Shown in pieces: positions 134-37,819 of a stretch of DNA of 44,891 nucleotides; positions within the stretch are counted from its first letter, which is position 1, and each line of letters starts with the position of its first letter. The stretch spans positions 1 to 44,891 of the IMG/VR virus record IMGVR_UViG_3300049847_000561. One strand, written 5' to 3'. A program made the translations under genes and the position numbers. The notes under the pieces are model-generated. The model was not told where the DNA came from and searched no databases. It was given only the letters and a program-made list of their open reading frames with translations. Source of the DNA: a virus.

Positions 134-1341
134 CATCTACAGAATCGACGATCAAAGCCGACACTATTGATGATTGGAATATTCTTGGTGCATTTACCAT
201 CACGGGAAGCGCATCCACTGCTGGCACTGCGAAGGGCGTTTACGCAAAAGGCTGCAATCGCTGGCGCGTGGAAAAGCCTACTTTCAAAACTATTCGAGGA
301 TACGGGCTTTACATCGAAGGGGGAACGCCGTCCGGCACATACAGGGGCGATCAAGGCTACATCGAAAACCCGGTTGCGCTGCAATGCTATATCGGGATGG
401 ACGTTGAGACTGGAGCAGGGGCTGAATACTGCGTAATTAACAACCCGATGATAACCGGCTGCACCACTGGTGCGGTAATCAAAGGAGGAAATACGGTTGT
501 GGTCGGCGGGAACATCACTGATAACAACGATAACCTTTCTCTTGCGGCAGGCGGCAACCACGGGCATGGGATATTCTCCGGGACAAACATAAATCACGGA
601 GTACAATACAACGTAAGGGCGCTTAATGTAGTCAATGGATATTCTTTTGAGGGATGCCATCTTTACGGTAACGGTAGCGGAAGCGGTGCTATCTATCTGT
701 CAAACTGCAAGGGCATTGTTTTTAGTAGCGGCTACTTGGATTGTTGGATTTACAATGATAGTGGTGCTGATAGCGGTTGGAACTACGCTAAAAACATGTA
801 TTGCCCCGGGAGTTACACTGTAAAAGTAACGGATACTGGAGCAGGCAAAGAACAATTTATCGCGCTTGGGTTAACCGGGCCTGGCTCGCTTGATGGTGGG
901 CTTAACATATCAGACCCTAGTGAAGTTTATGTTCATGCAAGACGTATTACTACTCAATCGCTTACTAGCTCTTCCGCATCCATATTAGTATTTAATGACG
1001 TGCAAACTAATGGCGACCGCAGGCAAGCATACGATTCTGCAACTGGAACATTCACGGTGCCTGTGGAGCAAGGTGGGCAATACAGAATATTTGTTTGTGT
1101 AGTATTTGCGGGAACAGCAATCACGCCAAATTACTGTGATGTAAATGTAAATAGTGGTGCTGAATTCAACAACGTTCCACTGGTTAACATTGGGACAGGT
1201 TTTATTAGTGGCGCATTAACTACTGATGTGTTTTTGAACGCAGGGGAGACGATAGAAATTATTGGTAATATATCTGGCACTTCGCCGGTATTCGGCAGTG
1301 TAGCATATAAATCATGTTTGTCTATTGAAAAAATTTCGTAA
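1..1341 (+). CDS. Tailspike/tail fibre, C-terminal part (gene wraps from window end)
   Basis: This is the continuation of the gene that begins at 44453; the joined protein is about 548 residues. The frame is open from base 1, and the ATG at 22 is internal. The middle part has the short, Gly/Asn-rich repeating strands of a right-handed parallel beta-helix, as in receptor-binding and polysaccharide-degrading tailspikes. The last 130 residues or so (from about 950) look like a C1q/TNF-type jelly roll (AYDSATGTFTVPVEQGGQYR), a common C-terminal trimerisation knob. It sits at the end of the P22-like tail genes, where P22 gp9 also lies. The tailspike role is inferred from fold signs and position; the substrate cannot be read from the sequence. 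Confidence 0.85.
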   Translation: MAKATTAMLSLKFPRGKYLVSGEAPLTMRAGGLWVMEGAEFLHTTSTESTIKADTIDDWNILGAFTITGSASTAGTAKGVYAKGCNRWRVEKPTFKTIRGYGLYIEGGTPSGTYRGDQGYIENPVALQCYIGMDVETGAGAEYCVINNPMITGCTTGAVIKGGNTVVVGGNITDNNDNLSLAAGGNHGHGIFSGTNINHGVQYNVRALNVVNGYSFEGCHLYGNGSGSGAIYLSNCKGIVFSSGYLDCWIYNDSGADSGWNYAKNMYCPGSYTVKVTDTGAGKEQFIALGLTGPGSLDGGLNISDPSEVYVHARRITTQSLTSSSASILVFNDVQTNGDRRQAYDSATGTFTVPVEQGGQYRIFVCVVFAGTAITPNYCDVNVNSGAEFNNVPLVNIGTGFISGALTTDVFLNAGETIEIIGNISGTSPVFGSVAYKSCLSIEKIS

Positions 1342-1362
1342 CTTTTTGTTTAAGGAATCAAG

Positions 1363-1623
1363 ATGCTTCAAAAAAGTACATGGCACTTAGACAAAACGTT
1401 TAATATTAGTCATGCAATTACTACCATTGCGATAGTGGTATCCCTGTTCAGTTGGGGGAGTAAGATTGACACCCGGATTAGTCTTGTGGAACAGCAACTT
1501 GCGGCGCAAGCGCGTCTGGATGAACAGCAAGATAAGCGTATGAAAGAAGCAGTAGATAACATTAGATCGGATATTACTTTGGTATCTATGAAGCTTGATC
1601 GGTTAATTGAACGTAAATACTAG
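1363..1623 (+). CDS. Small membrane protein: one TM segment plus coiled coil
   Basis: 86 residues. A hydrophobic helix (about residues 17-33, AITTIAIVVSLFSW) is followed by a charged, Gln/Glu-rich region that should form a coiled coil to the C-terminus. AGGA lies 8-9 bases before the ATG. It is the first gene after the tailspike and heads a run of small genes that includes holin-like and lipoprotein genes. The layout, an N-terminal anchor with a helical periplasmic or cytoplasmic part, would suit an inner-membrane spanin or a holin-associated protein, but no family signature is clear. Lysis function is inferred only from location and topology. Confidence 0.7.
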   Translation: MLQKSTWHLDKTFNISHAITTIAIVVSLFSWGSKIDTRISLVEQQLAAQARLDEQQDKRMKEAVDNIRSDITLVSMKLDRLIERKY

Positions 1624-1632
1624 GAGATTCAA

Positions 1633-1932
1633 ATGATATTCCCTAAAGGCACGGTTAAGATGGCGACGGTGAAGTGGGTGGATGCGGATGGCGATGCAGC
1701 AGTGGTTGATGGGATTCCTGTTTGGGCAGTGTCCCCGCCGGAATTGGCAACACTGGTTCCGAATGCGGACGGGATGAGCTGTGTGATTACGTTAGGTCAT
1801 GCAGTCGGCACATTGCAATTATCCGTTCGTGCTGACGCCGATCTTGGCGAAGGTGTGAAAGAAGTGATCGCTACAGTGGATCTCGAAGTGGTCGCAGGAG
1901 AGGCGGTCGTTGGAACGCTAGTTTTGTCATGA
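1633..1932 (+). CDS. Hypothetical virion protein, Ig-like beta fold
   Basis: 99 residues, ATG preceded by AGGAG at good spacing. The sequence is a series of short beta strands ending in a repeated VEVVAGEAV-type strand, and starts with a KWVDADGD motif; the pattern resembles the small bacterial-Ig-like domains often attached to or found beside phage fibres. No catalytic residues or membrane segment are visible. Its stop overlaps the next start by 4 bases, so the two genes are probably coupled in translation. The Ig-like assignment is a judgement from strand pattern, not from a family match. Confidence 0.65.
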   Translation: MIFPKGTVKMATVKWVDADGDAAVVDGIPVWAVSPPELATLVPNADGMSCVITLGHAVGTLQLSVRADADLGEGVKEVIATVDLEVVAGEAVVGTLVLS

Positions 1933-2141
1933 GCACATCGAGCGACTTGCGTGCTGACGCAGATCGGCTCCAGTTGCTCGTTGGCCGCATCTCGGGCATT
2001 GAAGCAGATATCGAAGCGTTGAAGAGAGCAGAAGCTCCATTAGTGAAAGAAGCCGGGGAGGTAGCGAAGAGGATTGAGGTGGAGCTTGCATTGCTTGTAT
2101 CTTCCCGGCCAGCAGTTCGTGGAATTATTACTTTAACTTAA
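1929..2141 (+). CDS. Small coiled-coil protein
   Basis: 70 residues, starting in an ATGA overlap with the preceding gene. Residues 5-55 are rich in Leu, Glu, Lys and Ala with heptad-like spacing (ADRLQLLVGRISGIEADIEA), so it is probably one long helix or coiled coil. No signal peptide, membrane segment or known motif is seen. It lies between a predicted Ig-like protein and an unknown gene in the tail/lysis stretch; a structural or chaperone role is possible but unsupported. Confidence 0.65.
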   Translation: MSTSSDLRADADRLQLLVGRISGIEADIEALKRAEAPLVKEAGEVAKRIEVELALLVSSRPAVRGIITLT

Positions 2142-2151
2142 GGAGTTTACC

Positions 2152-2511
2152 ATGCATAAAATTGTCATTACTGCAGTGCATCCTTCAGTGCCAGCAGTGA
2201 GTGTTATATTTACAGGACTCACTCCGCTAGAAGCAGCGGAAGTAGAATCTGCCCTGGTTTGCGGCGCATCGGATTGCAATCAACTGTCAGCGATGCGTGC
2301 CGGGGGTCGGAATCTTCCAGTGGCTTCTACCAATCTGGGCACGGGTACTGCGGGTTATACTATAGAAAGTGACGATCCAGCAGTTACTTGGGGATATTCA
2401 GGGAACAATACTTACTCAAATGTTTCACAAGAAGATTTTATAGGCTACCTAGCTGCGATTGAAGTGCGGTTGAGTCGCATTTCTCCCGCGGCAAAAGCTA
2501 AACGGAGTTAA
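2152..2511 (+). CDS. Hypothetical protein
   Basis: 119 residues, ATG after a good AAGGAG site. The N-terminal 50 residues alternate beta strands and a helix (LTPLEAAEVESALV). The middle is Gly/Thr/Ser-rich (LGTGTAGYTI) and the C-terminus is a basic helix. No membrane segment, cysteine cluster or enzyme motif is seen. It directly precedes the holin-like gene, whose ribosome site lies in its last codons. I do not recognise the family. Confidence 0.6.
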   Translation: MHKIVITAVHPSVPAVSVIFTGLTPLEAAEVESALVCGASDCNQLSAMRAGGRNLPVASTNLGTGTAGYTIESDDPAVTWGYSGNNTYSNVSQEDFIGYLAAIEVRLSRISPAAKAKRS

Positions 2512-2515
2512 TAAA

Positions 2516-2665
2516 TTGCTTACTGCAGCATGGTTAGTTGTATTGAAGATAATTGCTATAGCTGCAGTAGGCGCTTCTATTCTTGTTCTTGCAACAGAGG
2601 AGAGTGTGCGGGTGCTCGCAGTTCTCGCTCTTGCAGGAATGCTGATGGTGTGGTATTGGTTCTGA
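2516..2665 (+). CDS. Holin-like small membrane protein (two TM helices)
   Basis: A 49-residue gene starting at TTG 2516. GGAG at 2504-2507 is well spaced for it, and no ATG lies near. The product is almost all hydrophobic: one helix near residues 5-25 (AWLVVLKIIAIAAVGASILV), a short charged turn (ATEESVR), and a second helix ending in LMVWYWF. Two helices with a polar turn is the layout of class II holins, which open the inner membrane at lysis. The next gene encodes a lipoprotein, which supports a lysis cassette. The role is inferred from topology and context. Confidence 0.65.
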   Translation: MLTAAWLVVLKIIAIAAVGASILVLATEESVRVLAVLALAGMLMVWYWF

Positions 2666-2674
2666 GGAAATGCT

Positions 2675-2842
2675 ATGGATAAATATGTGATTGTGCTATT
2701 ATTTCCTTTGTTTGGTTGCGCAGGACTGCCTTCGTATGATGCGTGTGAAACGCTTCGTTATGAACGCACAAAGGAGCAGATTGAAGTGGTGTGCAAGCGT
2801 AGTTCCGCTGTGATCACGCTTCCGAGTATCCCGGGACTCTAA
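2675..2842 (+). CDS. Small lipoprotein, o-spanin (Rz1)-like
   Basis: A 55-residue gene with GAGGAA just upstream. The N-terminus is a lipoprotein signal: MDKYV followed by a hydrophobic stretch and the lipobox LFGC, with Cys15 as the lipidation site. The mature peptide is about 41 residues, contains two further cysteines and ends Pro/Gly-rich (LPSIPGL). Short outer-membrane lipoproteins beside a holin are typical outer spanins, which complete lysis in Gram-negative hosts. No overlapping Rz-type partner is obvious; the coiled-coil membrane protein at 1363 is the nearest candidate. The stop TAA shares its last A with the next ATG. Confidence 0.65.
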   Translation: MDKYVIVLLFPLFGCAGLPSYDACETLRYERTKEQIEVVCKRSSAVITLPSIPGL

Positions 2843-3276
2843 TGGCCACTTTCCAGCCGCCGCCGACTTATGCCGAAGTCGTTCTTGTGGACGAGGCAGG
2901 AAAGCGGCCGCCCCGTTTTAACCCTATTTGGCTGAAATGGTTTGTGGATGTAGCAAGGGCACTTGCGGCGGCTGCGGGAGGCAGTGGAACGTTGGTGCAT
3001 AATTCTTTAACTGGAATTCAAGGAGGTGTAGCAGATGAAGCCTATCATCTTTCTGCGTCTCAACTCTCTGCAATTCTTGCTGCACTTCCGCCGAGTGGAG
3101 CATTGGCGCTTCCTCTGCACACAGTTGCTGGATTGCCGACTGGGTCAAAAGGATACGTGGCAATGGTAACAGATTCCACACAGACGTTGATTGTGGGACT
3201 GGGACTTGCAGTAGTTGGTGGCGGGGCAAACAACGTCCCTGTGTATCATGACGGAACCATCTGGAGAATAGGATGA
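2842..3276 (+). CDS. Tail fibre-associated structural protein
   Basis: 144 residues, start overlapping the preceding stop (TAATG). The motif HNSLTGIQGG followed by YHLSASQ is common in tail-fibre and fibre-tip proteins of many phages, where it forms a short repeat domain before the distal end. The N-terminus contains FNPIWLKWFVD, also seen in small phage structural proteins. The C-terminus is Gly-rich and ends VYHDGTIWRIG, typical of fibre tips. The gene lies between the lysis-like genes and a GNAT gene. The structural role is fairly likely; the exact place in the virion is unknown. Confidence 0.65.
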   Translation: MATFQPPPTYAEVVLVDEAGKRPPRFNPIWLKWFVDVARALAAAAGGSGTLVHNSLTGIQGGVADEAYHLSASQLSAILAALPPSGALALPLHTVAGLPTGSKGYVAMVTDSTQTLIVGLGLAVVGGGANNVPVYHDGTIWRIG

Positions 3277-3743
3277 TCAGTGAGATAGAAGGGGTATACT
3301 TCGCACGGGAGACTGCGGCGCAGGTGATGCAGGAAATTGAACCACTTATGAAAGCTCATGAGGAGGTGCTGAAGAATGATATCACGCAAGAGTGGCCACT
3401 GGATGTTGACTTCGCACGGTATAGAAGAGCTGAAACAAACGGCGCATTTCGAGCCTATACTGCCAGGCATAACGGGAAGTTGGTTGGGTATTGCACTTTC
3501 TTCATCGCGAGTGCTACGCAACGAAAGTCTCTGGTCATTGCACACGAGGATGCGCTCTATCTGGCTCCGGAATATCGAAAGATGGGAGTGGCGAAGGGAC
3601 TCATGAACTTTGCAAACGATGGGCTGAAGGATGTAGCTGAGCTAGTAATCTACCATGCGCCAGAGGCGAATCCTCGCTTCGGTGTGCTGCTCAAGAGGGC
3701 AGGGTATAAGAAATATTCTGAATATTACGCAAGGAGATTATAA
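3273..3743 (+). CDS. GNAT-family N-acetyltransferase
   Basis: 156 residues, starting in an ATGA overlap. The acetyl-CoA-binding motif A is clear: a strand (EDALYLAPEYR) followed by RKMGVAKGLMNFA, fitting the R/Q-x-x-G-x-G/A signature of Gcn5-related acetyltransferases. A following strand with an alpha-helix (AELVIYHAPEANPRFGVLLKRAGYK) fits motif B. The N-terminal half is helical and would form the substrate side. It is embedded in virion genes, directly before the ejection proteins, so it is expressed late; it might modify a virion or host protein. The substrate is unknown. Confidence 0.8.
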   Translation: MISEIEGVYFARETAAQVMQEIEPLMKAHEEVLKNDITQEWPLDVDFARYRRAETNGAFRAYTARHNGKLVGYCTFFIASATQRKSLVIAHEDALYLAPEYRKMGVAKGLMNFANDGLKDVAELVIYHAPEANPRFGVLLKRAGYKKYSEYYARRL

Positions 3744-4702
3744 TGGCTTGTGCAGCGGTGGGTGCGTTTTTTGCAGAACTGGGGGCGAGTGCGGCAGCTG
3801 AAGGAGCTGTTGCTGCGGGGGTAGGTGAGGCAGCGGCAGGAGGGGTAGCCCTTGGTGCAGGAGAAGCAGCGGCAGGCGGTGCGGCGATTGGCGCGGGGGA
3901 AGCAGCTGCGGGTGGTGCAGCAATAGGTGCAGGGGAAGCGGGTGCATTTGGAGCTGCTTCTGCGGGGGAGTTGGCGGCAGCGAGTGCGGCTGATGCTACA
4001 GCATACGGCACAGGGGCAGGAGCTTTTGGCTTTGACGCAGGAGCTTATGCGAGTACTGGTGCGGGACTAGCTGGATCAGATATTGGGTCGGTTGCTGGAT
4101 GGTCTACATCTCCGTCATTTGAAGCTCTTGGTGGATCCTATGGAAGCGGTGGCTTTGGTTTGAGCGATCTTGGATCGTTCTATAAGTCCTACGTTTCTCC
4201 GGCAATGAGTGCCTTTTCTGGAATTAACGGACTGATGAATGCGGAAGAGCAGAAGAAACGTGCAGCAATGGCGAGTATGCTAGCCGATCCGTATGGCGCA
4301 TCGGGTGGCAGGGCGCAGGCGCAGGGACAGTTAAGTAATCTGATGAATGATCCGAGCCAGGTCGCCGCGAATGATCCAGCGTATAAACTTCGTATTCAAG
4401 CAGCCCAGCGAGCAATGGCGACGCATGGCCAGGGCAGTGGAGCGATGGGCGTAGCAGCGGCGAATGCTTCAACGGACTGGTATAATGCGCGGTTGGCGCA
4501 ACTTGGGCCTCTTGCTGGTGCGCAATTCTCTCCGGCGCAAGCGCAGCAAATTGCGATGCAAGGATACCAAGGCGCAAGCAATACGACGAGTCAGGCGCTC
4601 GGTTCCCTCGGATTCGCCGGGCAGCAACTCGCAGGACAGAACACCGCTTCCATGCCCCCGGCAGTTCGCCAGTGGCTGGCCCAACAAGCGATGGTGGCGT
4701 AA
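3743..4702 (+). CDS. Ejection/internal virion protein, small (Gly/Ala repeat N-terminus)
   Basis: 319 residues. The start shares a base with the preceding stop. Residues 1-80 are extremely Gly/Ala-rich and include tandem 12-residue units (GEAAAGGAAIGA), giving a weakly hydrophobic, GxxxG-rich segment that could enter membranes. The rest is helical, with Gln/Ala/Ser-rich parts typical of podovirus internal virion proteins such as the small ejectosome component. It is the first of three consecutive large virion genes that end the late operon, the position of ejection proteins in P22-like and T7-like phages. The role is inferred from composition and place. Confidence 0.65.
   Translation: MACAAVGAFFAELGASAAAEGAVAAGVGEAAAGGVALGAGEAAAGGAAIGAGEAAAGGAAIGAGEAGAFGAASAGELAAASAADATAYGTGAGAFGFDAGAYASTGAGLAGSDIGSVAGWSTSPSFEALGGSYGSGGFGLSDLGSFYKSYVSPAMSAFSGINGLMNAEEQKKRAAMASMLADPYGASGGRAQAQGQLSNLMNDPSQVAANDPAYKLRIQAAQRAMATHGQGSGAMGVAAANASTDWYNARLAQLGPLAGAQFSPAQAQQIAMQGYQGASNTTSQALGSLGFAGQQLAGQNTASMPPAVRQWLAQQAMVA
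3824..3955 (+). repeat. Tandem 36-bp repeats encoding GEAAAGG(A/V)A(I/L)GA
   Basis: Three consecutive 36-bp units encode near-identical 12-residue blocks (codons 28-63 of the gene at 3743), followed by a decayed fourth unit (GEAGAFGA). The units differ mainly at third codon positions, so the protein pattern looks maintained. The array lies in the Gly/Ala-rich N-terminus of a predicted ejection protein. Confidence 0.85.
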
Positions 4703-11647: not shown

Positions 11648-14121
11648 TTACATTCTCCCCAGGAGACGGTGCTGGTCTTAATGCCAGATGGAATAATCAA
11701 CGGCGTTTCGTAAGGGATGTTGATGCGAGAATGTTGCTGCATGAGTGGAAGCACATAATGCTCGCGGTGCGTGGGGAATTGGCCAGCTAGTGAATCGTGA
11801 ACCTGCAGCAACACCTGACACTCTGGAATGTGATTGTGGAAATTCATCCAGGCACGATTGATTACGCAGCCCACCGTGCTCTGCGGAATCCACGCCACTG
11901 CCTCTGGAATAATTCCATCCTTCCGATCAAAGATATACCAGCGATAGCCAAATCGATTCTCCACGAATCCTCGCTTCATCACACTTTCCTCTACGCGGGA
12001 ATGCCATTTCTTGATGCCGGGGTGGATGGAGAACCAGCGCTTTTGAGCTTTGTCTACTTCATGAACCGAGCGCCCGATGTTCGCTGCAATAGTGCTTGCG
12101 CCTCCAACGTAATTCGTAGCATAGGCGAATACCTTTTGGAATTCTCTTTTATATTTCCGGGGACCACGATGATCGGGATACTTTGGGTGATCCTCCACCA
12201 ATTCCTCTAGAGGCGGCGGCTCCTGCCCGTCCATATCAAACACTCCAAGCAAGTGCATATCTACTCCAGCTTTCATCGCCTTCATCCAGTCCGTTTCTCC
12301 TGACTCCCAAACTACCACCTGGAGATCCGCTCGATCCAGATCCATATCGAAGAAGGTGAATCCAGCATCAGGTCCATACATGCTGCGAATGTTAGGGAGA
12401 GTAAAATCCATACTGCCTCTCGCCGCCGCCTTGCCCGCAGACTTTGACTTCTCACTTGGAATAGTCTGGAGATTTCCTCCGCTTCCAAAGGGGTTCTTGG
12501 AGGAGCTGAGGCGATAGGAGTAGGGCGCACTTTTTCCACCGGCGTCTCCGGCTATGTTGAAGGAGCAACGCATCCGGCCATCGGAGTCAAGTTGCATGAG
12601 GACAAAGTCCCGGAGGAACTTGCCGAGGGTGCGGATGTCTGCGATTGCGTTGGTGATAGGAAGAAGAAGGGGTTCCCTTGCAGCGATCTTCTGAAGAGCT
12701 TCGTCATCGCAAGTCGGCGCCATTACTGTGCGGCCGTTTTTGATTGTCCGCTTGAGGATGGGTTTCTGTTTCAGATCTTCGTAGAAGAGAGTTGCCATTT
12801 GTTTGGAAGAGCCGGGATTGATTTGGTGGCCGAGGACATCGAAGAGGAAGGCTTCCCGGTGGGATAGTTCTTCCTGTATATCCTGCGCCATTTGATCTCG
12901 GACTTCAGGGATTACTCGAACACCGCGCAGCATGGCGGAAAGGACAGGGTAGAAGAGGGCTTGTTGGGATTGATCGACTGTTGATAATCCCATCGCAGTG
13001 AGAGTGTTGATTAAGACTTCCCCGGCTTCCCTTGTATAAACACAATCTTGGAGATTGTATCTCCAGCGTTGATCTTCTGGTTCGCCGGTTGCTAGCTTTC
13101 CCTCATCCTTCCAATACACATACCAGTCTGCGTACATGGAAGCGAGGAATCCAAGGCCTTTTGGCAGCGCACAGAATGCGGAATGCTGACTGATCATGGT
13201 ATCCTGGCCGTGCTTCGGGATGAAGTGCCAGTGACGATAGATATACTGTGCATCGAATAGACCATTCTGCCAACGGATCTTCACGCGATCATGAGAAAGA
13301 AGTTTGGTGAGGAGCCAAACAATCTCCGTTTCTTCTTCGAGCGACCAGTAGCCTTCCTTATTCGCCGTGGTCATGAAGGGGATGCAGATGGCGTCTTGAC
13401 GCGACCAAGAGAAGCCTATGCAATCTATATGATTTGCCTTCGTCTCAATGTCGAAATCTAACCAGTGATCCCAGGACTGATCATCCGTGTCGAGCTTCCG
13501 AATTAGGTCGATGATACAATCCTGCACTTCATCGAAGCGGGGGCGGACGGTGAATCTCCAATCAGGGCGATTTGTCCATTCTTTCCCAGTGATATGACGC
13601 TTTACTCGACGGAGGTCGTTAAGGACAAGTCGGCGATTACTCCACTCTTTCTGGATTGCAGCAGGATGGATGGTGGGGATTATCTTCTGTCCATCCATAG
13701 AAGTTAACTGGCTGCCGCGCCATTTTAAGATTCCCCATTTTCCTGTGAGCACCCACAAGGGAAGATTCCCAAAGGCGACGATAATATTTGGCTGGACTTG
13801 CTCAATCTCCAGCATCAATTCCCTATATCCATCAATGACGGGAGGAAGGACATATTTATCCTGGAATAGAACATGCGCGGGAGTAATGTCTTTCTTTGCC
13901 TTGGCGATCCAAGAAAAGAGATTATTCTCCGGCGGACGCACTCTACAGACGTTGGTGAGATAACACTCACTGCGCATGATGCCGCATTCTTGTAGCATCC
14001 TGTTCAATTCTACGCCAGAGTAGCTGGAGAAGGGCTGCCCAGTGTCCTCGTCCTCTGAAGAGGGATGCTCCCCGACGAGCATGATGCGAGAAGGAATTGG
14101 CCCGGTGCCGTGGACTTTCAT
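11644..14121 (-). CDS. Uracil-DNA glycosylase / family A DNA polymerase fusion
   Basis: 825 residues with two parts. Residues 12-175 match the family 4/5 uracil-DNA glycosylase fold: GEHPSSEDEDTGQPF (17-31), TNVCRVRPPENN (56-67) and IHPAA (151-155); the usual N-terminal iron-sulphur cysteines are missing. Residues 215-825 form a proofreading family A polymerase: exonuclease motifs DFDIETK (222-228), N286xxxD290 and YNLQD (355-359); polymerase motif A DMDLDRADL (592-600), motif B around KREFQKVFAYATNY (658-671) and motif C QVHDS (773-777), where the usual Glu after His-Asp is Ser. It copies phage DNA and may remove or sense uracil in the template. ATGA overlaps couple it to the methyltransferase gene upstream and to the 62-residue gene downstream. 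Confidence 0.9.
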   Translation of the reverse strand: MKVHGTGPIPSRIMLVGEHPSSEDEDTGQPFSSYSGVELNRMLQECGIMRSECYLTNVCRVRPPENNLFSWIAKAKKDITPAHVLFQDKYVLPPVIDGYRELMLEIEQVQPNIIVAFGNLPLWVLTGKWGILKWRGSQLTSMDGQKIIPTIHPAAIQKEWSNRRLVLNDLRRVKRHITGKEWTNRPDWRFTVRPRFDEVQDCIIDLIRKLDTDDQSWDHWLDFDIETKANHIDCIGFSWSRQDAICIPFMTTANKEGYWSLEEETEIVWLLTKLLSHDRVKIRWQNGLFDAQYIYRHWHFIPKHGQDTMISQHSAFCALPKGLGFLASMYADWYVYWKDEGKLATGEPEDQRWRYNLQDCVYTREAGEVLINTLTAMGLSTVDQSQQALFYPVLSAMLRGVRVIPEVRDQMAQDIQEELSHREAFLFDVLGHQINPGSSKQMATLFYEDLKQKPILKRTIKNGRTVMAPTCDDEALQKIAAREPLLLPITNAIADIRTLGKFLRDFVLMQLDSDGRMRCSFNIAGDAGGKSAPYSYRLSSSKNPFGSGGNLQTIPSEKSKSAGKAAARGSMDFTLPNIRSMYGPDAGFTFFDMDLDRADLQVVVWESGETDWMKAMKAGVDMHLLGVFDMDGQEPPPLEELVEDHPKYPDHRGPRKYKREFQKVFAYATNYVGGASTIAANIGRSVHEVDKAQKRWFSIHPGIKKWHSRVEESVMKRGFVENRFGYRWYIFDRKDGIIPEAVAWIPQSTVGCVINRAWMNFHNHIPECQVLLQVHDSLAGQFPTHREHYVLPLMQQHSRINIPYETPLIIPSGIKTSTVSWGECK

Positions 14122-15425
14122 TTCAGCTCCTGTATCCGTGCCACGGCCTTTCCATAGCTCACTGGGTCTTTCTCAATCCCGATTGCTTTGCATAGAAGTT
14201 CATGCGCCGCCGGGAAGATGGGGCCAGTGCCGCAGAAGGTATCGAGGACCGTGTCGCCTGGTTGGACGGAGCGGGCAAGAAGATCTTTGTAAAGGGAGAC
14301 TGGTTTTTGAGCACTATGATCCATCTGCGCGTCAGGGCCATGGTAGAGCACATCCCCCGACATTGTGTTCACTGGACGTTTCCCCTTCACCGCGTAGAGG
14401 ATTGCTTCCCATTTTCTCTGGGGACCGTAGAGTGGCCAAGGTGCGCGGGAGCCTTGTGGCTTGTGCCAGATAAGCGGGGTGCGGAATACTTCCCATCCCT
14501 CGTCGATAAAGCAATCTCGGTCTTTGAAGAAAGTCTCGATGTCGCAGAACCAGTAGAGATGAGCTTGATCTTTAGCAACACGATAGAATTCGAAGGCGCA
14601 GTTGGTTACGAGCTTGTGATGATAGGCTTCATCATCGGAGTAGGCGTGAGCGCCTACGCTGCCTATTCCGCCGGAGTCGCCGAAGGAGTCTGCTCCCATT
14701 CCATACGGCGGATCAGTGAGGATTACATCTATTGAGTCGGTAGGTGCTTGTTCTAACCATTCAAGACAATCAACATTAATGCACTGGTGTGCTGCGGCGG
14801 AGAAATCCTTTCCGACCAACTCCCCAAGCTTCACTGACTTCGCTCGGCGTTCCAGCTTAAGCACAGCTTTAAACGCTTCCTTCACTGACTTCGCCGCGGC
14901 GACTTCTGGATGGGAGAGATGGCGGGAGACGATAATTTCCTTTCGTGTCTTATCAGTGAAGAACACGCTGTCGCTTCCCTTCGTTTCCGCGGCGATGGAG
15001 GAATAAGAAGGAGCGGGGGCGCCAGAGGCGACGGCTTGCTTCGTGCGAAGGTCGGAGAGTCTGGCGACAGCGGTTGCTTGCTCGGCCCAGGTTAGATCCT
15101 TCCGGCAGACATTCTCCTCGAGTTCCGCCTCTTCTGCAGCGAGAGGGTCGAGGTCGGAGAAGAGAGTATAAGGAATCTCCCCCTCCGGGACTGGCTGGCT
15201 GTCATGGGAGATACTCCCTCCCATATCATAGATATTTGTGATCGCACGAAGCCTCCGCTCCCCGGCGACAAGGACAAAGTCGTCCCCTTCCTTCCGCAGG
15301 ATAATCGCGTGGAGAAGCCCCCTCTCCTGGATGCGTTCGGAGAATTCGTGTGTGTCTTCGAGGGAGAACTCCTTCCGCTGGCGGTTGGGAGAGATGACGA
15401 TCTGGGAGAGGGGGAGGGTTTTCAT
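14118..15425 (-). CDS. ParB-like nuclease domain / DNA methyltransferase fusion
   Basis: 435 residues. Residues 1-120 are a ParB/Srx-type domain with the GERRLRA motif (55-61). Residues 215-435 are an N6-adenine/N4-cytosine methyltransferase with DPPYGMG (238-244) before FCGTG (397-401), the beta-class order. Such fusions are frequent orphan methyltransferases in phages and mobile elements, protecting DNA from host restriction or acting in regulation. No restriction endonuclease gene is nearby. The start lacks a strong ribosome site and lies immediately after the previous stop; the end overlaps the polymerase start (ATGA). The methylated sequence cannot be predicted. Confidence 0.88.
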   Translation of the reverse strand: MKTLPLSQIVISPNRQRKEFSLEDTHEFSERIQERGLLHAIILRKEGDDFVLVAGERRLRAITNIYDMGGSISHDSQPVPEGEIPYTLFSDLDPLAAEEAELEENVCRKDLTWAEQATAVARLSDLRTKQAVASGAPAPSYSSIAAETKGSDSVFFTDKTRKEIIVSRHLSHPEVAAAKSVKEAFKAVLKLERRAKSVKLGELVGKDFSAAAHQCINVDCLEWLEQAPTDSIDVILTDPPYGMGADSFGDSGGIGSVGAHAYSDDEAYHHKLVTNCAFEFYRVAKDQAHLYWFCDIETFFKDRDCFIDEGWEVFRTPLIWHKPQGSRAPWPLYGPQRKWEAILYAVKGKRPVNTMSGDVLYHGPDAQMDHSAQKPVSLYKDLLARSVQPGDTVLDTFCGTGPIFPAAHELLCKAIGIEKDPVSYGKAVARIQELK

Positions 15426-23077: not shown

Positions 23078-23244
23078 GAGACTCAGAACCGAGGCGGCGG
23101 ATGGAGCGTTTTGGCTGCTCTAACGAAGGGTGGCCTTTCCCTTCCATCCGCCTCTCAAGCCGCCCCTGGCGGAAGGACAAAGGCGGAGTCTCACGTCTTC
23201 CTTTGTCTACTCAGGGACTCGGGAAAGGCTTTACGCGTTTTCCC
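23078..23244 (-). ncRNA. Candidate structured RNA: hairpins, three-way junction, possible pseudoknot
   Basis: About 165 nt, mostly intergenic, can fold densely. A long stem joins 23091-23105 with 23143-23154 (12 pairs, one 3-nt bulge). Inside are hairpins GAGC/GCTC (23104-23107 with 23117-23120) and AAGGG/CCCTT (23126-23130 with 23139-23143), making a three-way junction. Next to it are CCGCC/GGCGG (23160-23172), GACAAAGG/CCTTTGTC (23176-23207) and GGGAAA/TTTCCC (23221-23244). GAGACTC (23078-23084) can pair with GAGTCTC (23186-23192), which lies in the loop of a hairpin: a pseudoknot. It follows an HNH endonuclease, so an intron core or a control element is possible. No RNA family is recognised. 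Confidence 0.5.
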
Positions 23245-23686
23245 TAAAACGATTTTCCCAAGATTTTCTTGCGCAACACGCTTCAAAAAAATCTTTTCCG
23301 CGATAAAGTGTTATGCCGTTATACTGTACACTTCCAATCACCCGCCAAGTTTTTTGTTCTTTTATATATTCTATGCCTTTTAGCTTAGCTTTACTTGTTA
23401 TTCTTTTTCTGGCATTAAAGTTTTGTATTGAACGCGTTGCCCATACACAATTATCTTTGCAATAATTTTTATCGTTATCTTTTCTTTCTAACGACAATTC
23501 ATCTACTTTTTCAGGCTTCATGCCCATGTCCGCTAAAAACACTTCAAATCTTTCCCAAGAAGGATCGTATGTTATACCTCTTCCTCCGTAATTTTTATAG
23601 TTACTTTTGTTTGGATTGTTACAACGAGCTTTCATGTCTGCCCAAGCTCTGTAAGTTGGTGTATTTCTTTTTCCGTGCGTTATCAT
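23231..23686 (-). CDS. HNH homing endonuclease with AP2-like C-terminal domain
   Basis: 151 residues from ATG 23686, preceded by AAGGA at good spacing; an upstream in-frame ATG at 23710 lies just past a hairpin and is less likely. The N-terminal part is typical of free-standing phage HNH endonucleases: THGKRNTPTYRAWADMKARC, NYGGRGITYDPSWERFEVF and LERKDNDKNYCKDNCVWATR, with the Cys/His/Asn residues of the HNH core. Residues 105-150 resemble an AP2 DNA-binding domain (GIEYIKEQKTWRVIGSVQYN). The region is more AT-rich than its neighbours, as for a recently moved element. It presumably cuts uninfected or rival phage genomes to spread itself. Its position between two small genes shows no split gene. 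Confidence 0.88.
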   Translation of the reverse strand: MITHGKRNTPTYRAWADMKARCNNPNKSNYKNYGGRGITYDPSWERFEVFLADMGMKPEKVDELSLERKDNDKNYCKDNCVWATRSIQNFNARKRITSKAKLKGIEYIKEQKTWRVIGSVQYNGITLYRGKDFFEACCARKSWENRFRENA

Positions 23687-23714
23687 TTTAATTCCTTCAT
23701 TAAGGGACATTACT

Positions 23715-33006: not shown

Positions 33007-33194
33007 TCAGGATAACGTATACACATGTCTGCGATCGGTGCATGGAAGTGGCATACCAGGAAGTGTACTCCCTTCCTTACGCACGGGCGGCGCTTCCTGT
33101 TCCAGATTCTTATAAAGGAATCGGGGATTACTCTTTATGCCACGAATGCGCAGCAATTGTAGGTAAGGCCTTTCAAGAGGCCATGCAGAAATGA
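33003..33194 (+). CDS. Small zinc-binding protein
   Basis: 63 residues, coupled by ATGA overlaps at both ends. It has CDRC near residue 10 and CHEC near residue 46, forming a probable zinc site, flanked by a Tyr/Pro-rich middle. The next gene is the large terminase. Its role could be in packaging or DNA binding, but only the cysteine pairs are visible. Confidence 0.65.
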   Translation: MIRITYTHVCDRCMEVAYQEVYSLPYARAALPVPDSYKGIGDYSLCHECAAIVGKAFQEAMQK

Positions 33195-34765
33195 GCGAGT
33201 CTGTTCAACTAACTGCCAAGCTTATCGAATCTTTCGCGGGGATGTTCATCTCCCAACGATACGATAATCCCAAGCCCACTCCTCCTTTTCACAGGACTGC
33301 GTGGGCACTTTATTCCAGTGACGCTCCGGCCGCGGTAGTGGTTGCTCCGCGGGATCATGCGAAGAGCACGGGGCTGACTACGGATTATATCCTGGCAGAA
33401 TGTTTGTTCCGTTCCTCTGATTATGTGATCCTGGTAGGCAGCACTGAAGAGGGCGCATCAGAGCAATTGGGAAATATTGCAGAGGAACTAACTGAAAACG
33501 ACGATCTCGTCCGTGAATTCAAGATAAAGAAGTTCATAAAGTCCTCTGCATCAGACATCATCGTGGAAATGCAGGATGGGCACAGATTCCGAGTGCTTGC
33601 AAAGGGCGCGGAACAGCGGATTCGTGGACGGTTGTGGAAGGGGAAGAGGCCGAATCTGGTAGTATGCGATGACATGGAAGATGACGAACAGGTAGAAAAC
33701 CCAGAGCGCCGGATGAAATTCCGCCGGTGGTTCTTCCGCGCTGCGAAGCAAGCCCTAGGCAAACAAGGAAAGATTCGAGTGCACGGGACAATTCTGCAAG
33801 AAGATTCCCTCCTTGCTCGCCTCATCGCGTGTCCGACTTGCAAGATTCGCACGCAAGATGTTGGCGATGGTCCTTGCCCAAAATGCGGAACAGAGAAGTC
33901 CTGGAAACATCTCTATTACAAAGCCCACGCAAGCTTCGACGATTTCTCTAATATCCTCTGGCCACAGCGATGGACGGAGAAACAACTCCGCGCACGGCGG
34001 CAAGAATTTATCGAAGACGGCGATAGTGCGGGCTATTCCCAGGAATTTCTTAATGACCCCCAAGACAACGCAGAATCGTATCTCCGGCGCCAAGACTTCC
34101 TCCCCATGTCAGATGAAGATAGGGAAGTGGACAAAAAAATCTCCGTTGGATGGGACTTCGCAGTCAGTAGATCCGACATGGCTAATAGAACTAGTTATAC
34201 TGTCGGTGGGCCGGATCTCCAAAATACGATCCACTTCTTAGATTTCCACGCCGCTCGCCTCAGCCCAACCGTTTCTCCCGCGGAAAAGGCTGCAGGTGAG
34301 TACGGGTGGATCGATCTGATGTTTGAAGTGGATGAACGGTGGCACCCAGGGGTGCATTTTGTGGAGGGAGGGACAATCTGGAAGTCAGTGGAAAACACTG
34401 TCTACACGGAAATGGCGGCAAGGGGAAAGTTTCTCAATCTCCAGGTGCTTAATCCGGTGAAGGATAAGGCGGTTCGGGGGATTCCACTGAAGAAACGCCA
34501 TCGTGCCGGAGCTACTCGGTGGAATACCCGTGCTGATGGCTATACCAGCGCGAAGGAAGAGATGCTTCGCTTCACTGGATTCGCCGCGGCAAGACTGGAC
34601 GATCAATTTGACTCCGCAGCTACTCTTGTCCTAGGCATAGAACAGCACCCTGCGGTGGAAAAGGAAGATTTCTTCACTGATGAAGATTTTGAAATGGAAC
34701 GCGGGTTTTGGAATCGGAAGGAATTGGATAACTCCGGAGGGCGATCGCGTGTCACTGGATATTAA
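33191..34765 (+). CDS. terL: Terminase large subunit with internal zinc ribbon
   Basis: 524 residues. The ATPase carries Walker A APRDHAKST (52-60), Walker B VVCDDMED (157-164) and coupling residues after it; the nuclease half begins with VGWDFAVSRSD, where Asp322 is a likely metal ligand, with later acidic residues (IDLMFEVDE). Between them is an inserted zinc ribbon, CPTC (214-217) and CPKC (229-232), that most large terminases lack. It pumps DNA into the prohead and cuts the concatemer. The end overlaps the TnpB-like gene by 17 bases. The function is confident; the ribbon's role is unknown. Confidence 0.92.
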   Translation: MSESVQLTAKLIESFAGMFISQRYDNPKPTPPFHRTAWALYSSDAPAAVVVAPRDHAKSTGLTTDYILAECLFRSSDYVILVGSTEEGASEQLGNIAEELTENDDLVREFKIKKFIKSSASDIIVEMQDGHRFRVLAKGAEQRIRGRLWKGKRPNLVVCDDMEDDEQVENPERRMKFRRWFFRAAKQALGKQGKIRVHGTILQEDSLLARLIACPTCKIRTQDVGDGPCPKCGTEKSWKHLYYKAHASFDDFSNILWPQRWTEKQLRARRQEFIEDGDSAGYSQEFLNDPQDNAESYLRRQDFLPMSDEDREVDKKISVGWDFAVSRSDMANRTSYTVGGPDLQNTIHFLDFHAARLSPTVSPAEKAAGEYGWIDLMFEVDERWHPGVHFVEGGTIWKSVENTVYTEMAARGKFLNLQVLNPVKDKAVRGIPLKKRHRAGATRWNTRADGYTSAKEEMLRFTGFAAARLDDQFDSAATLVLGIEQHPAVEKEDFFTDEDFEMERGFWNRKELDNSGGRSRVTGY

Positions 34766-35204
34766 ATCAGGGAACTTTTCTAAAAGACCAAGGTCTAATG
34801 ATCGTGCGGTCGGTGTTGATGCGGGGTATAAAGATAAAGTTGTGCTTAGTGACGGGATTCGCTTGAATAAAAGTTTTGATGAAATTGCAGAGTATCTGGC
34901 GAAGGAATACACGACGGTTTGCGTGGAATCGCTTTCGCCAGAATTGTCCTATCTACAAATTCTGCTGAAGCGAATTGAATCCGCGTGCTTGGCAGCAAAA
35001 GTTACCTTTATCAAAATTGATCGTTTCTACCCCTCAACCAGGCTTTGTTTCGATTGCGGGAAGCTGACCGGCCCTACACAACTCCACGTGAGAAAGTGGG
35101 TATGTGGAAACTGTGGAGAGAAGCACGATCGTGACATCAACGCAGCTCGGAACATCCGGGCAAGGGGACTTAAATTGCAGGCACTGGCGGCAAAATCATG
35201 CTAG
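34749..35204 (+). CDS. Miniature TnpB-like RuvC nuclease with zinc ribbon
   Basis: 151 residues from GTG 34749, chosen because GGAGGG (34736-34741) is ideally spaced; an ATG at 34680 lies deep in terminase. The RuvC motifs are VGVDAGYK (Asp24), TVCVESLSP (Glu60) and DRDINAARNI (Asp129). The ribbon STRLCFDCGK...WVCGNCGEKH supplies Cys100, 103, 119 and 122, and the whole C-terminus reads like TnpB/Cas12f. Only 36 residues separate the first two motifs (about 87 in ISDra2 TnpB), and the REC/WED half that binds guide RNA is absent. It overlaps terL and portal, leaves no room for transposon ends or an omega RNA, and no tnpA exists. Perhaps a junction-resolving packaging nuclease. Confidence 0.82.
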   Translation: MSLDIKSGNFSKRPRSNDRAVGVDAGYKDKVVLSDGIRLNKSFDEIAEYLAKEYTTVCVESLSPELSYLQILLKRIESACLAAKVTFIKIDRFYPSTRLCFDCGKLTGPTQLHVRKWVCGNCGEKHDRDINAARNIRARGLKLQALAAKSC

Positions 35205-37270
35205 AATTAGAGATGAAGATTGAGCTGACCAAGGACGTGATTGAATCACCAAATCTCTGCGGGATGCTTTCCGATTCAGATCTCGCTGCGATTGGAGCAG
35301 AGTGCAAAGAGGGTTATGACCTAGACGAGCAGTCCCGCATGGACTGGCTCAAGCGAAATGAAGCAGGGATGAATCTTGCTCTGCAAATTCAAACAGCGAA
35401 AACCTTTCCTTGGCCGGATTGTGCGAATGTGAATTTTCCGCTGGTCACTATCGCAGCGATGCAGTTTCACGCTCGGGCTTATCCCTCCATTATCAATGGC
35501 ACTAACATAGTCAAGTGCGCAGACTATGACGAGTCCGAGCAAATGACTGCTCGTGCGCGCAAAGTCAGCAAGCACATGAGCTGGCAATTGCTGGAGCAGG
35601 ATAAATGCTGGGAAGAGCAAGAGGATAAGGCTATCCTCAATCTTTCCATTGTCGGGACGAATTTTAAGAAATCGTATTACTCTGCCGCCAAGCATCACAA
35701 TGTGAGTGAATTGGTGCTTGCGAAAGATTTGGTGCTAAACTACTGGTCGAAGTCGGTAGAAGAATGCCCCCGGAAGACTCACATTATTCCGATGGACAGG
35801 AATGAGATTTATTCCGGCGTGAAGCAAGGTATCTATCGAGATGTGCTGGAGGAAGAATGGTATCGTTCCGCTCAGGCGCCGATGCCGAATATGATCTCCG
35901 CCGGGGAAGATAAGCGCCAGGGCACAACTCCCCCGCGCCCGGATCAAACAGCCCCCTTTACTATTCTCGAACAACACGTATCTCTGGATCTCGATCAGGA
36001 TGGTTATGCTGAACCATACATCGTTACCTTTGATAAGGCTACTGCGCACGTGCTGCGTATAGTTACTCGCTTCAACGACGAGAAGGCAATCGAACGAGTC
36101 GCCGGGGGAAAGTATAAAAATCAGATCCTTCGCATTCATCCTGATGAATACTTCACTAAGAAGACCTTTATTCCTTCCCCTGACGGCGGCATTTATGACA
36201 TTGGTTTTGGTGTATTCCTTGGCCCTCTTAATGAGGCTACTAATTCCTTGGTTAATATGCTCCTCGATTGCGGCACGTTGCAGACAACGGGCGGTGGCTT
36301 TTTGGGACGTGGCGCTAAGATACGAGGTGGGACTTATACTGTTGCCCCCTTCGAATGGAAGCGGGTGGATTCCACTGGCGATGATCTTAGAAAATCGATC
36401 TTTCCATTACCCGTCAACGCTCCATCCGACGTACTATTTCAACTGCTGTCTCTTCTGATCAACTATGCATCGCGTATCTCCGGCACCACGGACATAACAG
36501 TAGGAGAGAACCCCGGCCAGAACACCCCCGCTTCCACCACTCAGACTATGGTGGAGATGGGACAGAAAATCTACACGGCGATATTCAAGCGTATCTGGCG
36601 TGCGTCAAAGTCGGAGTTTCAGAAGCTTTACTTGCTTAACCGCCATTTCCTTCCAGTAAACAAAACCTTTGTTGGCGGAGCAACACTTCTCGATTATCTC
36701 GGCCCATCTGATGCAATCTGCCCTGTTGCCGATCCGAATCTGACGAGCGAATCTCTGCGCCTTCAACAGGCGATGGCACTGAAAACTGCGGCGGCAACGA
36801 CTCCTGGATACAACAAAGATGCAGTGGAGCGCCGGTTCCTCACGGCACTGCGAGTCGAAGGTCAAGCGGAACTATTTCCTGGCACTGAAGGTCAGCCGCC
36901 GGCGAAAGACCCGAAGCTTGTTATTGAAGAAGCAAAGATCGCAGGAGCGGCGGCTATGCAGGATAAACAACTCGCTGCTGATAGAGAGCAATTCTTGATT
37001 GGACTGCAGGAAGAGCACGTTCTGAACATGGCGAAAGTGGTAGAGCTGACTGCGAAGGCTGAAGAAGCCGCGGCCAATGCACAGAATGAAGCAGCGTATG
37101 CACAGGTCGCTCTGATCAATGCGCAAATTTCCGATGTGCAAGAGGCGGATAAGCGGCTGAATACTCGTATTGAGCATTTCTTGCGACTGTCTGAACTGAA
37201 ACTCAAGCATGTCTTGGAAAGCAAGAAACTCGCTATTGAAGAAAAGAAGTTATCTAAGGAAGCGGCATGA
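35198..37270 (+). CDS. Portal protein (P22-like)
   Basis: 690 residues. Position after the terminase and the layout fit a P22-type portal: an N-terminal region DWLKRNEAGMNLALQIQTAK, PDCANVNFPLVTIAAMQFHA, a central beta/stem region, GTTDITVGENPGQNTPASTT (about 430-450) and a long helical C-terminus (barrel-like, AEEAAANAQNEAAYAQVALI). The portal ring is the DNA entry channel and the terminase docking site. The start overlaps the TnpB-like gene by 7 bases; a second ATG at 35213 is also possible, and neither has a strong ribosome site. Portal identity is well supported by context. Confidence 0.85.
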   Translation: MLELEMKIELTKDVIESPNLCGMLSDSDLAAIGAECKEGYDLDEQSRMDWLKRNEAGMNLALQIQTAKTFPWPDCANVNFPLVTIAAMQFHARAYPSIINGTNIVKCADYDESEQMTARARKVSKHMSWQLLEQDKCWEEQEDKAILNLSIVGTNFKKSYYSAAKHHNVSELVLAKDLVLNYWSKSVEECPRKTHIIPMDRNEIYSGVKQGIYRDVLEEEWYRSAQAPMPNMISAGEDKRQGTTPPRPDQTAPFTILEQHVSLDLDQDGYAEPYIVTFDKATAHVLRIVTRFNDEKAIERVAGGKYKNQILRIHPDEYFTKKTFIPSPDGGIYDIGFGVFLGPLNEATNSLVNMLLDCGTLQTTGGGFLGRGAKIRGGTYTVAPFEWKRVDSTGDDLRKSIFPLPVNAPSDVLFQLLSLLINYASRISGTTDITVGENPGQNTPASTTQTMVEMGQKIYTAIFKRIWRASKSEFQKLYLLNRHFLPVNKTFVGGATLLDYLGPSDAICPVADPNLTSESLRLQQAMALKTAAATTPGYNKDAVERRFLTALRVEGQAELFPGTEGQPPAKDPKLVIEEAKIAGAAAMQDKQLAADREQFLIGLQEEHVLNMAKVVELTAKAEEAAANAQNEAAYAQVALINAQISDVQEADKRLNTRIEHFLRLSELKLKHVLESKKLAIEEKKLSKEAA

Positions 37271-37506
37271 TTGAAGCTGTAGAATTCACTGAATGGAAAG
37301 AGCACCCGGTAACTAAGGCGCTCCTTCTTGCACTGAACGCAAAGAGAGAAGAGTTGCGACAACAATGGGAAGGTGGAAGCTTTGGGGATTATTCTAAAGA
37401 TACCACTATCCTTCTTAATGTCGGCAACCTGGGCACCTGTAAAGGGTATGCTTGGGTTACTGATTTAACGTATGAAGAATTGATCGGAGAATTAGGTGGA
37501 AAATAA
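37267..37506 (+). CDS. Small hypothetical protein
   Basis: 79 residues, overlapping the portal stop (ATGA). It is helical at first (VTKALLLALNAKREELRQQW) then has a short beta region (YSKDTTILLNVGNLGTCKGY). The last codons contain the next gene's ribosome site and start. It resembles small phage proteins between portal and scaffold; function unknown. Confidence 0.65.
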   Translation: MIEAVEFTEWKEHPVTKALLLALNAKREELRQQWEGGSFGDYSKDTTILLNVGNLGTCKGYAWVTDLTYEELIGELGGK

Positions 37507-37819
37507 CAGTGGACTTGAGCCAGTGGGAGTTGCCGTGCTGATTAAGATGTATGAACCCGAGCGCAAAGATGGGATGATTGTTATTCCTGACGCAGTGCAA
37601 GGGAAAATGGCACAAGTGGACGTTCGGGCTACTGTGGTAGCGGTTGGGCCGGGCGCCTGGGAAGAAGAAAAGCGTCCTCGCGCAGTTCCAGGGGATCGAG
37701 TTATGGTGACGAAATTCGCTGGATTCATTGCGAAAGGGCCAAAGGACGGGCAGCTCTACCGGCTTATCAATGATCGGGATATTTTCTGCAAGATTGTAGA
37801 GGAAAATGAAAATGTCTGA
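37496..37819 (+). CDS. GroES-like co-chaperonin
   Basis: 107 residues from GTG 37496, with GGAG six bases upstream. The sequence tracks the Cpn10 fold: PVGVAVLIKMYEPERKDGMI, VIPDAVQGK (mobile-loop region, residues 29-37), ATVVAVGPGAW, VPGDRVMVTKFAG and a final strand DIFCKIVEE. Co-chaperonins cap GroEL and some phages replace GroES with their own version (such as T4 gp31) to fold their capsid protein. Here it lies between portal and scaffold, close to the capsid gene. The interaction with host GroEL is inferred. Confidence 0.85.
   Translation: MENNSGLEPVGVAVLIKMYEPERKDGMIVIPDAVQGKMAQVDVRATVVAVGPGAWEEEKRPRAVPGDRVMVTKFAGFIAKGPKDGQLYRLINDRDIFCKIVEENENV

What the first reader, a model, noticed from the sequence alone, without database searches (positions are those of the whole stretch)
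34749..35204. Miniature TnpB-like RuvC/zinc-ribbon nuclease locked into the terminase-portal operon
The 151-residue product keeps Asp24, Glu60 and Asp129 in TnpB/Cas12f-type RuvC contexts (VGVDAG, VESLS, DRDINAARNI) and the C4 zinc ribbon, but has no REC/WED half and a very short gap between RuvC I and II. It overlaps terL by 17 bp and portal by 7 bp, so there are no transposon ends, no tnpA and no space for an omega RNA. The genome shows no RusA, RuvC, T7 endonuclease I or endonuclease VII. A domesticated, guide-free TnpB descendant that resolves branched DNA for packaging would be a new use of this family.
Basis: partly seen in the sequence, partly recalled or inferred. Interest (0 to 1): 0.87.

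Follow-up and report, generated by a model that had tools for sequence, protein, structure and literature searches.

The report
Stripped-down TnpB nuclease beside phage terminase
An uncultured phage carries, wedged between its two DNA-packaging genes, a tiny nuclease that looks like the cutting half of the transposon enzyme TnpB (an ancestor of CRISPR Cas12) without any of the parts that hold a guide RNA, which would be a new way of using this enzyme if it cuts DNA on its own.

Summary
Window 34749-35204 (+) encodes 151 aa (GGAGG ribosome site 8 nt upstream, inside terL) that overlap terL by 17 bp and portal by 7 bp. It matches TnpB profiles in two collinear blocks, keeps the Asp24/Glu60/Asp129 triad and the four zinc cysteines, and lacks everything N-terminal of RuvC-I (WED/REC). 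D-to-E spacing is 36 residues, against 82-92 in 124 full-length TnpBs; the lid behind Glu60 is also shortened. It keeps 27 of 33 conserved TnpB positions but only 27 of 115 others, so it looks selected, not decayed. An alignment-based AlphaFold model (pLDDT 89) is an RNase H core: best match TnpB (Z 17.9), then RuvC and poxvirus resolvases bound to junction DNA (Z 9.8). In 60 sister loci terL and portal often abut, and none has this gene; one sister carries an Endonuclease VII gene in the same slot. No second such mini protein was found. Best reading: a phage-exapted, guide-free RuvC/zinc-ribbon nuclease acting on branched or distorted DNA around packaging. Structure and descent are well supported; catalysis, guide independence and the resolvase role are inferred. 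The 'phage lacks a resolvase' argument is weak: most sisters also lack a recognised one.

The parts
34749..35204 (+). Mini TnpB-derived RuvC/zinc-ribbon protein gene, 151 aa, GTG start
34736..34740 (+). Shine-Dalgarno GGAGG, 8 nt before the GTG, inside the variable tail of terL; not present there in the sisters compared
34818..34820 (+). RuvC-I Asp24 codon (VGVDAG)
34926..34928 (+). RuvC-II Glu60 codon (VESLS)
35046..35114 (+). C4 zinc ribbon, Cys100/Cys103 and Cys119/Cys122
   Evidence: PF07282
35133..35135 (+). RuvC-III Asp129 codon (HDRDINAARNI)
33191..34765 (+). terL, terminase large subunit; full length relative to sisters
35198..37270 (+). Portal (head-to-tail connector); its ATG overlaps the mini stop (ATGCTAG)

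Best explanation
A TnpB gene fragment was captured between terL and portal in one phage lineage and kept as a stand-alone RuvC/zinc-ribbon nuclease. It lost WED/REC, most of the helical hairpin between RuvC-I and II, and much of the lid that in TnpB covers the active site until a guide-target duplex forms; it kept the RNase H core, the metal-binding triad and the zinc ribbon. The most likely mode of action is two-metal cleavage without a guide RNA, with specificity from DNA structure (branches, distorted or single-stranded segments), made together with terminase and portal so that branched replicating DNA can be packaged, as proposed for T4 endonuclease VII and phage RuvC. Shown here: descent, domain loss, conserved triad, predicted fold, operon position, slot shared with an Endonuclease VII gene in a sister. 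Inferred: translation, catalysis, guide independence, substrate, role in packaging.
For: Two collinear TnpB-profile blocks. Spacing D-E 36 vs 82-92, E-C 40 vs 51-74, C-D 29 vs 28-30 in 124 TnpBs: the hairpin and lid segments are shortened, the core is not. 27/33 conserved against 27/115 other positions kept (Fisher p 1.7e-9). Model pLDDT 89.3, pTM 0.83; Z 17.9 to TnpB 8h1j, 9.8 to RuvC-junction and fowlpox resolvase-junction complexes. Private GGAGG and ATGCTAG overlap. Phage-like codon-position GC. pI 9.3. Sister L102: Endonuclease VII (PF02945 E 3.4e-22) in the same slot. Literature: T4 gp49 binds the portal and frees packaging stalled on branched DNA (PMC9958956); phage RuvC proposed to clear branches before packaging (PMC3864405); phage resolvase types displace one another (PMC7824862); the TnpB lid blocks the RuvC site (PMC11844463).
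Against: No homologue with the same architecture was found, so selection within a family cannot be tested. Most sister phages have neither this gene nor a recognised resolvase. The sister with Endonuclease VII in the slot has a second copy elsewhere, so the slot copy may be a mobile nuclease. TnpB acts as a monomer whereas junction resolvases are dimers (general knowledge); no dimer was modelled. The model rests on an alignment of full-length TnpBs, which favours a TnpB-like fold; without an alignment confidence was low (pLDDT 45).
Confidence: 0.45

Rival explanations
1. A relic: a TnpB insertion trimmed by deletions that happens to be still open, with no function of its own.
For: Singleton among 60 sister loci; several genomes hold TnpB remnants of similar length; the terL/portal slot also holds unrelated inserts.
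Against: Selective retention of conserved positions, two in-frame shortenings that leave the core intact, intact triad and cysteines, ribosome site and tight overlaps, high-confidence fold.
Confidence: 0.17
2. A free-standing selfish or host-directed nuclease that uses the terL/portal junction as a landing place, like HNH endonucleases between phage genes, with no role in packaging.
For: The slot is an insertion site; a sister has an HNH-fold Endonuclease VII there plus another copy elsewhere; this phage also carries an HNH endonuclease.
Against: Homing needs site specificity; without a guide-binding half none is apparent. GC 46.5% is near the phage's 51%, unlike the HNH gene at 35%, so it is not obviously a recent arrival.
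Confidence: 0.2
3. A DNA- or RNA-binding accessory or regulator (a terminase or portal partner) that uses the RuvC/zinc-ribbon fold for binding and not for cutting, like TldR among TnpB descendants.
For: Nuclease-dead TnpB descendants with phage roles are known (TldR, PMC13418256); the protein is basic, pI 9.3.
Against: All three catalytic acids are kept; the nuclease-dead descendants lose them and keep the guide-binding parts (general knowledge).
Confidence: 0.12
4. A guide RNA supplied in trans still directs it, making it a minimal RNA-guided nuclease.
For: Parts of the TnpB RuvC/zinc-ribbon surface touch the omega RNA (general knowledge).
Against: No WED/REC, hairpin or full lid; no non-coding space and no Rfam hit around the gene; no full-length TnpB elsewhere in the record.
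Confidence: 0.04

Closest known systems
TnpB of IS200/IS605 elements (RNA-guided nuclease; solved ISDra2 TnpB 8h1j, 8exa)
   Same: Collinear RuvC-I, II, III and C4 zinc ribbon; up to 60% identity over 60 residues of the zinc ribbon/RuvC-III part; fold Z 17.9
   Different: 151 aa instead of 359-426; no WED/REC; D-E spacing 36 vs 82-92; lid shortened; no omega RNA, IS ends or tnpA seen
RuvC-family Holliday junction resolvases (bacterial RuvC, phage bIL67 RuvC, poxvirus resolvase)
   Same: Same size class and RNase H core with an acidic active site; Z 9.8 to junction-bound RuvC and fowlpox resolvase
   Different: No hit to the RuvC family PF02075; extra zinc ribbon; of TnpB descent by sequence
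T4 endonuclease VII (gp49) and PF02945 relatives
   Same: A PF02945 gene sits in the same terL/portal slot in sister L102; proposed analogous packaging role
   Different: Unrelated HNH/treble-clef fold
TldR, phage-encoded TnpB-derived RNA-guided regulators
   Same: A TnpB descendant put to use by phages
   Different: TldR keeps guide binding and loses catalysis; this protein does the reverse

Membership tests
TnpB (RNA-guided nuclease) | RuvC D-E-D triad in TnpB motif contexts | tested here: met
   D24, E60, D129 in invariant TnpB columns
TnpB (RNA-guided nuclease) | C4 zinc ribbon between RuvC-II and RuvC-III (TNB domain) | tested here: met
   PF07282 E 7.5e-17; C100, C103, C119, C122 aligned
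TnpB (RNA-guided nuclease) | N-terminal WED/REC half that binds omega RNA and the TAM | tested here: not met
   Nothing before TnpB profile position 172; D24 against a median D position of 185
TnpB (RNA-guided nuclease) | Helical hairpin and full lid around RuvC-II | tested here: not met
   D-E 36 vs 82-92 and E-C 40 vs 51-74 residues
TnpB (RNA-guided nuclease) | Omega RNA at the 3' end and IS200/IS605 ends | tested here: inconclusive
   No Rfam hit, no end repeats, portal start directly abuts; not every omega RNA is in Rfam
RuvC Holliday junction resolvase | Match to the RuvC family | tested here: not met
   No PF02075 match in the record
RuvC Holliday junction resolvase | RNase H fold with an acidic active site | tested here: met
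   Model m4296ad2b279b, Z 9.8 to RuvC 6s16
RuvC Holliday junction resolvase | Dimer that cuts four-way junctions | not testable with these tools
   Needs biochemistry
Endonuclease VII (PF02945) | HNH/treble-clef family match | tested here: not met
   No PF02945 hit in the record

The most novel reading that the evidence does not exclude
A TnpB descendant stripped to its RuvC/zinc-ribbon core works without a guide as a phage branch- or junction-resolving nuclease made with the packaging motor: the reverse of the accepted path from RuvC-like nuclease to guided TnpB and Cas12, and the smallest functional member of the TnpB lineage.
Probability: 0.33. Interest if true: 0.85.

Novelty: new variant of a known kind. 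Interest (0 to 1): 0.62.

Why it matters
Characterised TnpB, Fanzor and Cas12 nucleases depend on a guide RNA, and the known phage exaptation (TldR) keeps the guide and loses the cut. A naturally occurring 17-kDa core that keeps the cut and loses the guide would test whether the RuvC/zinc-ribbon module is active on its own once the lid is gone, and would bear on how guided nucleases arise from, and return to, structure-selective RuvC enzymes. It would also add a type of nuclease to the phage packaging toolkit.

Tried and rejected
Chance or misread ORF: rejected (two-block profile match). Ordinary full-length TnpB with a misplaced start: rejected, as upstream is conserved terL. Transposon insertion: no end repeats, no tnpA, no RNA family. 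These searches need exact short peptides or codons, so distant minis may exist; metagenome contigs could not be scanned. phrog_17087 (profile 141 positions, unknown function, E 2.6e-15) might hold short TnpB-like proteins; its members could not be read here. Single-sequence structure prediction failed (pLDDT 45). Papers on stand-alone or RuvC-only TnpB: none found.

Full report
Observation. Window 34749-35204 (+) is a 151-codon ORF starting with GTG, overlapping terL (33191-34765) by 17 bp and portal (35198-37270) by 7 bp. An in-frame ATG at 34680 would lengthen it to 174 aa, but GGAGG at 34736-34740 lies 8 nt before the GTG; the 17 sister terL tails compared do not have it there. The stop overlaps the portal start as ATGCTAG. 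Codon-position GC is phage-like. The window is an IMG/VR virus record of 44,891 bp (G000), with no end repeats found, so completeness is unknown.

Identity. Pfam TNB domain PF07282, E 7.5e-17. TnpB family models match below their cut-offs. Solved TnpBs are the best sequence matches in the PDB. A profile built from 138 full-length TnpBs matches in two collinear blocks, RuvC-I (mini 14-40, profile 172-198) and from helix B through the zinc ribbon to RuvC-III (mini 72-146, profile 291-365). All 171 profile positions before that, the WED/REC half, are absent.

What was removed. Across 124 full-length TnpBs the distance from the first Asp to Glu is 82-92 residues and from Glu to the first zinc Cys 51-74; here they are 36 and 40, while the Cys-to-last-Asp distance, 29, is unchanged. 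The lost pieces are the helical hairpin between RuvC-I and II and much of the segment behind the catalytic Glu. The latter is the lid, which in TnpB blocks the RuvC site until a guide-target duplex forms (PMC11844463) and regulates cleavage in Fanzor (PMC11423790). Reading its loss as an uncovered active site is inference.

Selection. Of 40 columns at least 90% conserved in 50 TnpBs, the mini has residues in 33 and keeps 27, including the triad, the four cysteines and HDRD.NAA.NI. In the other 115 aligned columns it matches the majority in 27 (Fisher p 1.7e-9). Full-length TnpBs typically match about half of such columns, so the mini is strongly diverged yet kept where it matters. This argues against a decaying remnant, though without a close homologue it is not proof. 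On a tree it is a long, weakly placed branch.

Fold. Without an alignment AlphaFold2 gave pLDDT 45; with 43 TnpB rows 89.3, pTM 0.83. The element order b1-b2-aA-b4-aB-b5-zinc ribbon-aC is an RNase H core. Best PDB matches are TnpB 8h1j (Z 17.9), other TnpB/Cas12f/Fanzor chains, then RuvC and fowlpox resolvase in complex with Holliday junctions (Z about 9.8). The alignment biases the model towards TnpB, and a shared fold does not show function.

Context. In 60 terL-related loci with both genes, terL and portal abut within 5 nt in 28, and none has a mini-like match; 29 sister records have none anywhere. The nearest annotated phages also have terL and portal adjacent. The gene is therefore an insertion in this lineage. 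The slot takes other genes too: an ATP-grasp protein (L121/L122), unassigned small proteins, and in L102 an Endonuclease VII-family gene (PF02945, E 3.4e-22). Across the group Endonuclease VII occurs in 8 of 30 records (7 over the cut-off), while RusA and RuvC occur in none of 26. Thus most phages of this group manage without a recognised resolvase, and its absence here says little. L102's second Endonuclease VII copy also weakens the inference from the shared slot.

Mechanism. The combination of an intact metal site, no guide-binding half, a shortened lid, expression with terminase and portal, and a slot shared with an Endonuclease VII gene makes a guide-free, structure-selective nuclease acting around packaging the best single explanation (about 0.45). 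T4 gp49 associates with the portal and releases packaging stalled on branched DNA (PMC9958956); phage RuvC is proposed to clear branches before packaging (PMC3864405); resolvase types replace one another in jumbo phages (PMC7824862). Rivals are a mobile or host-directed nuclease, a relic, a non-catalytic accessory, and a protein guided in trans.

Novelty. The papers searched describe no stand-alone RuvC/zinc-ribbon TnpB (open-licence papers only). By descent it is a TnpB relative; by membership it fails TnpB's guide-binding features, so it is filed as a new variant, not as a TnpB. As a single example with untested activity it is interesting but not established.

Noticed in passing
L102:6469-6915 (sister phage record G005): Endonuclease VII-family gene exactly between terL and portal, in a phage that has a second PF02945 gene elsewhere (G005:C1:31834-32082).
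   Followed up: partly
window 23231-23710 (-): HNH endonuclease with GC 35% against 51% for the phage; the family match in six frames reads through one TAA; looks like a recently acquired endonuclease.
   Followed up: no
L121:6085-7020 and L122:6500-7435: ATP-grasp (RimK-like) protein gene inserted between terL and portal in two sister phages.
   Followed up: no
L406 (MW202785.1) 2246-3878: terL annotated as two adjacent pieces with a 133-nt gap; possible intron, insertion or frameshift.
   Followed up: no
L408 (OR260089.1) 665-3468: Caulobacter phage GB2A has two CDSs annotated terminase large subunit with a DNA methyltransferase between them.
   Followed up: no
window 37496-37819 (+): 107-aa protein that by eye resembles phage GroES co-chaperonins, at the place where annotated relatives have a GroES gene after the portal.
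   Followed up: no
window 14118-15425 (-): Fusion of a ParB-like N-terminal domain with a DNA methyltransferase.
   Followed up: no
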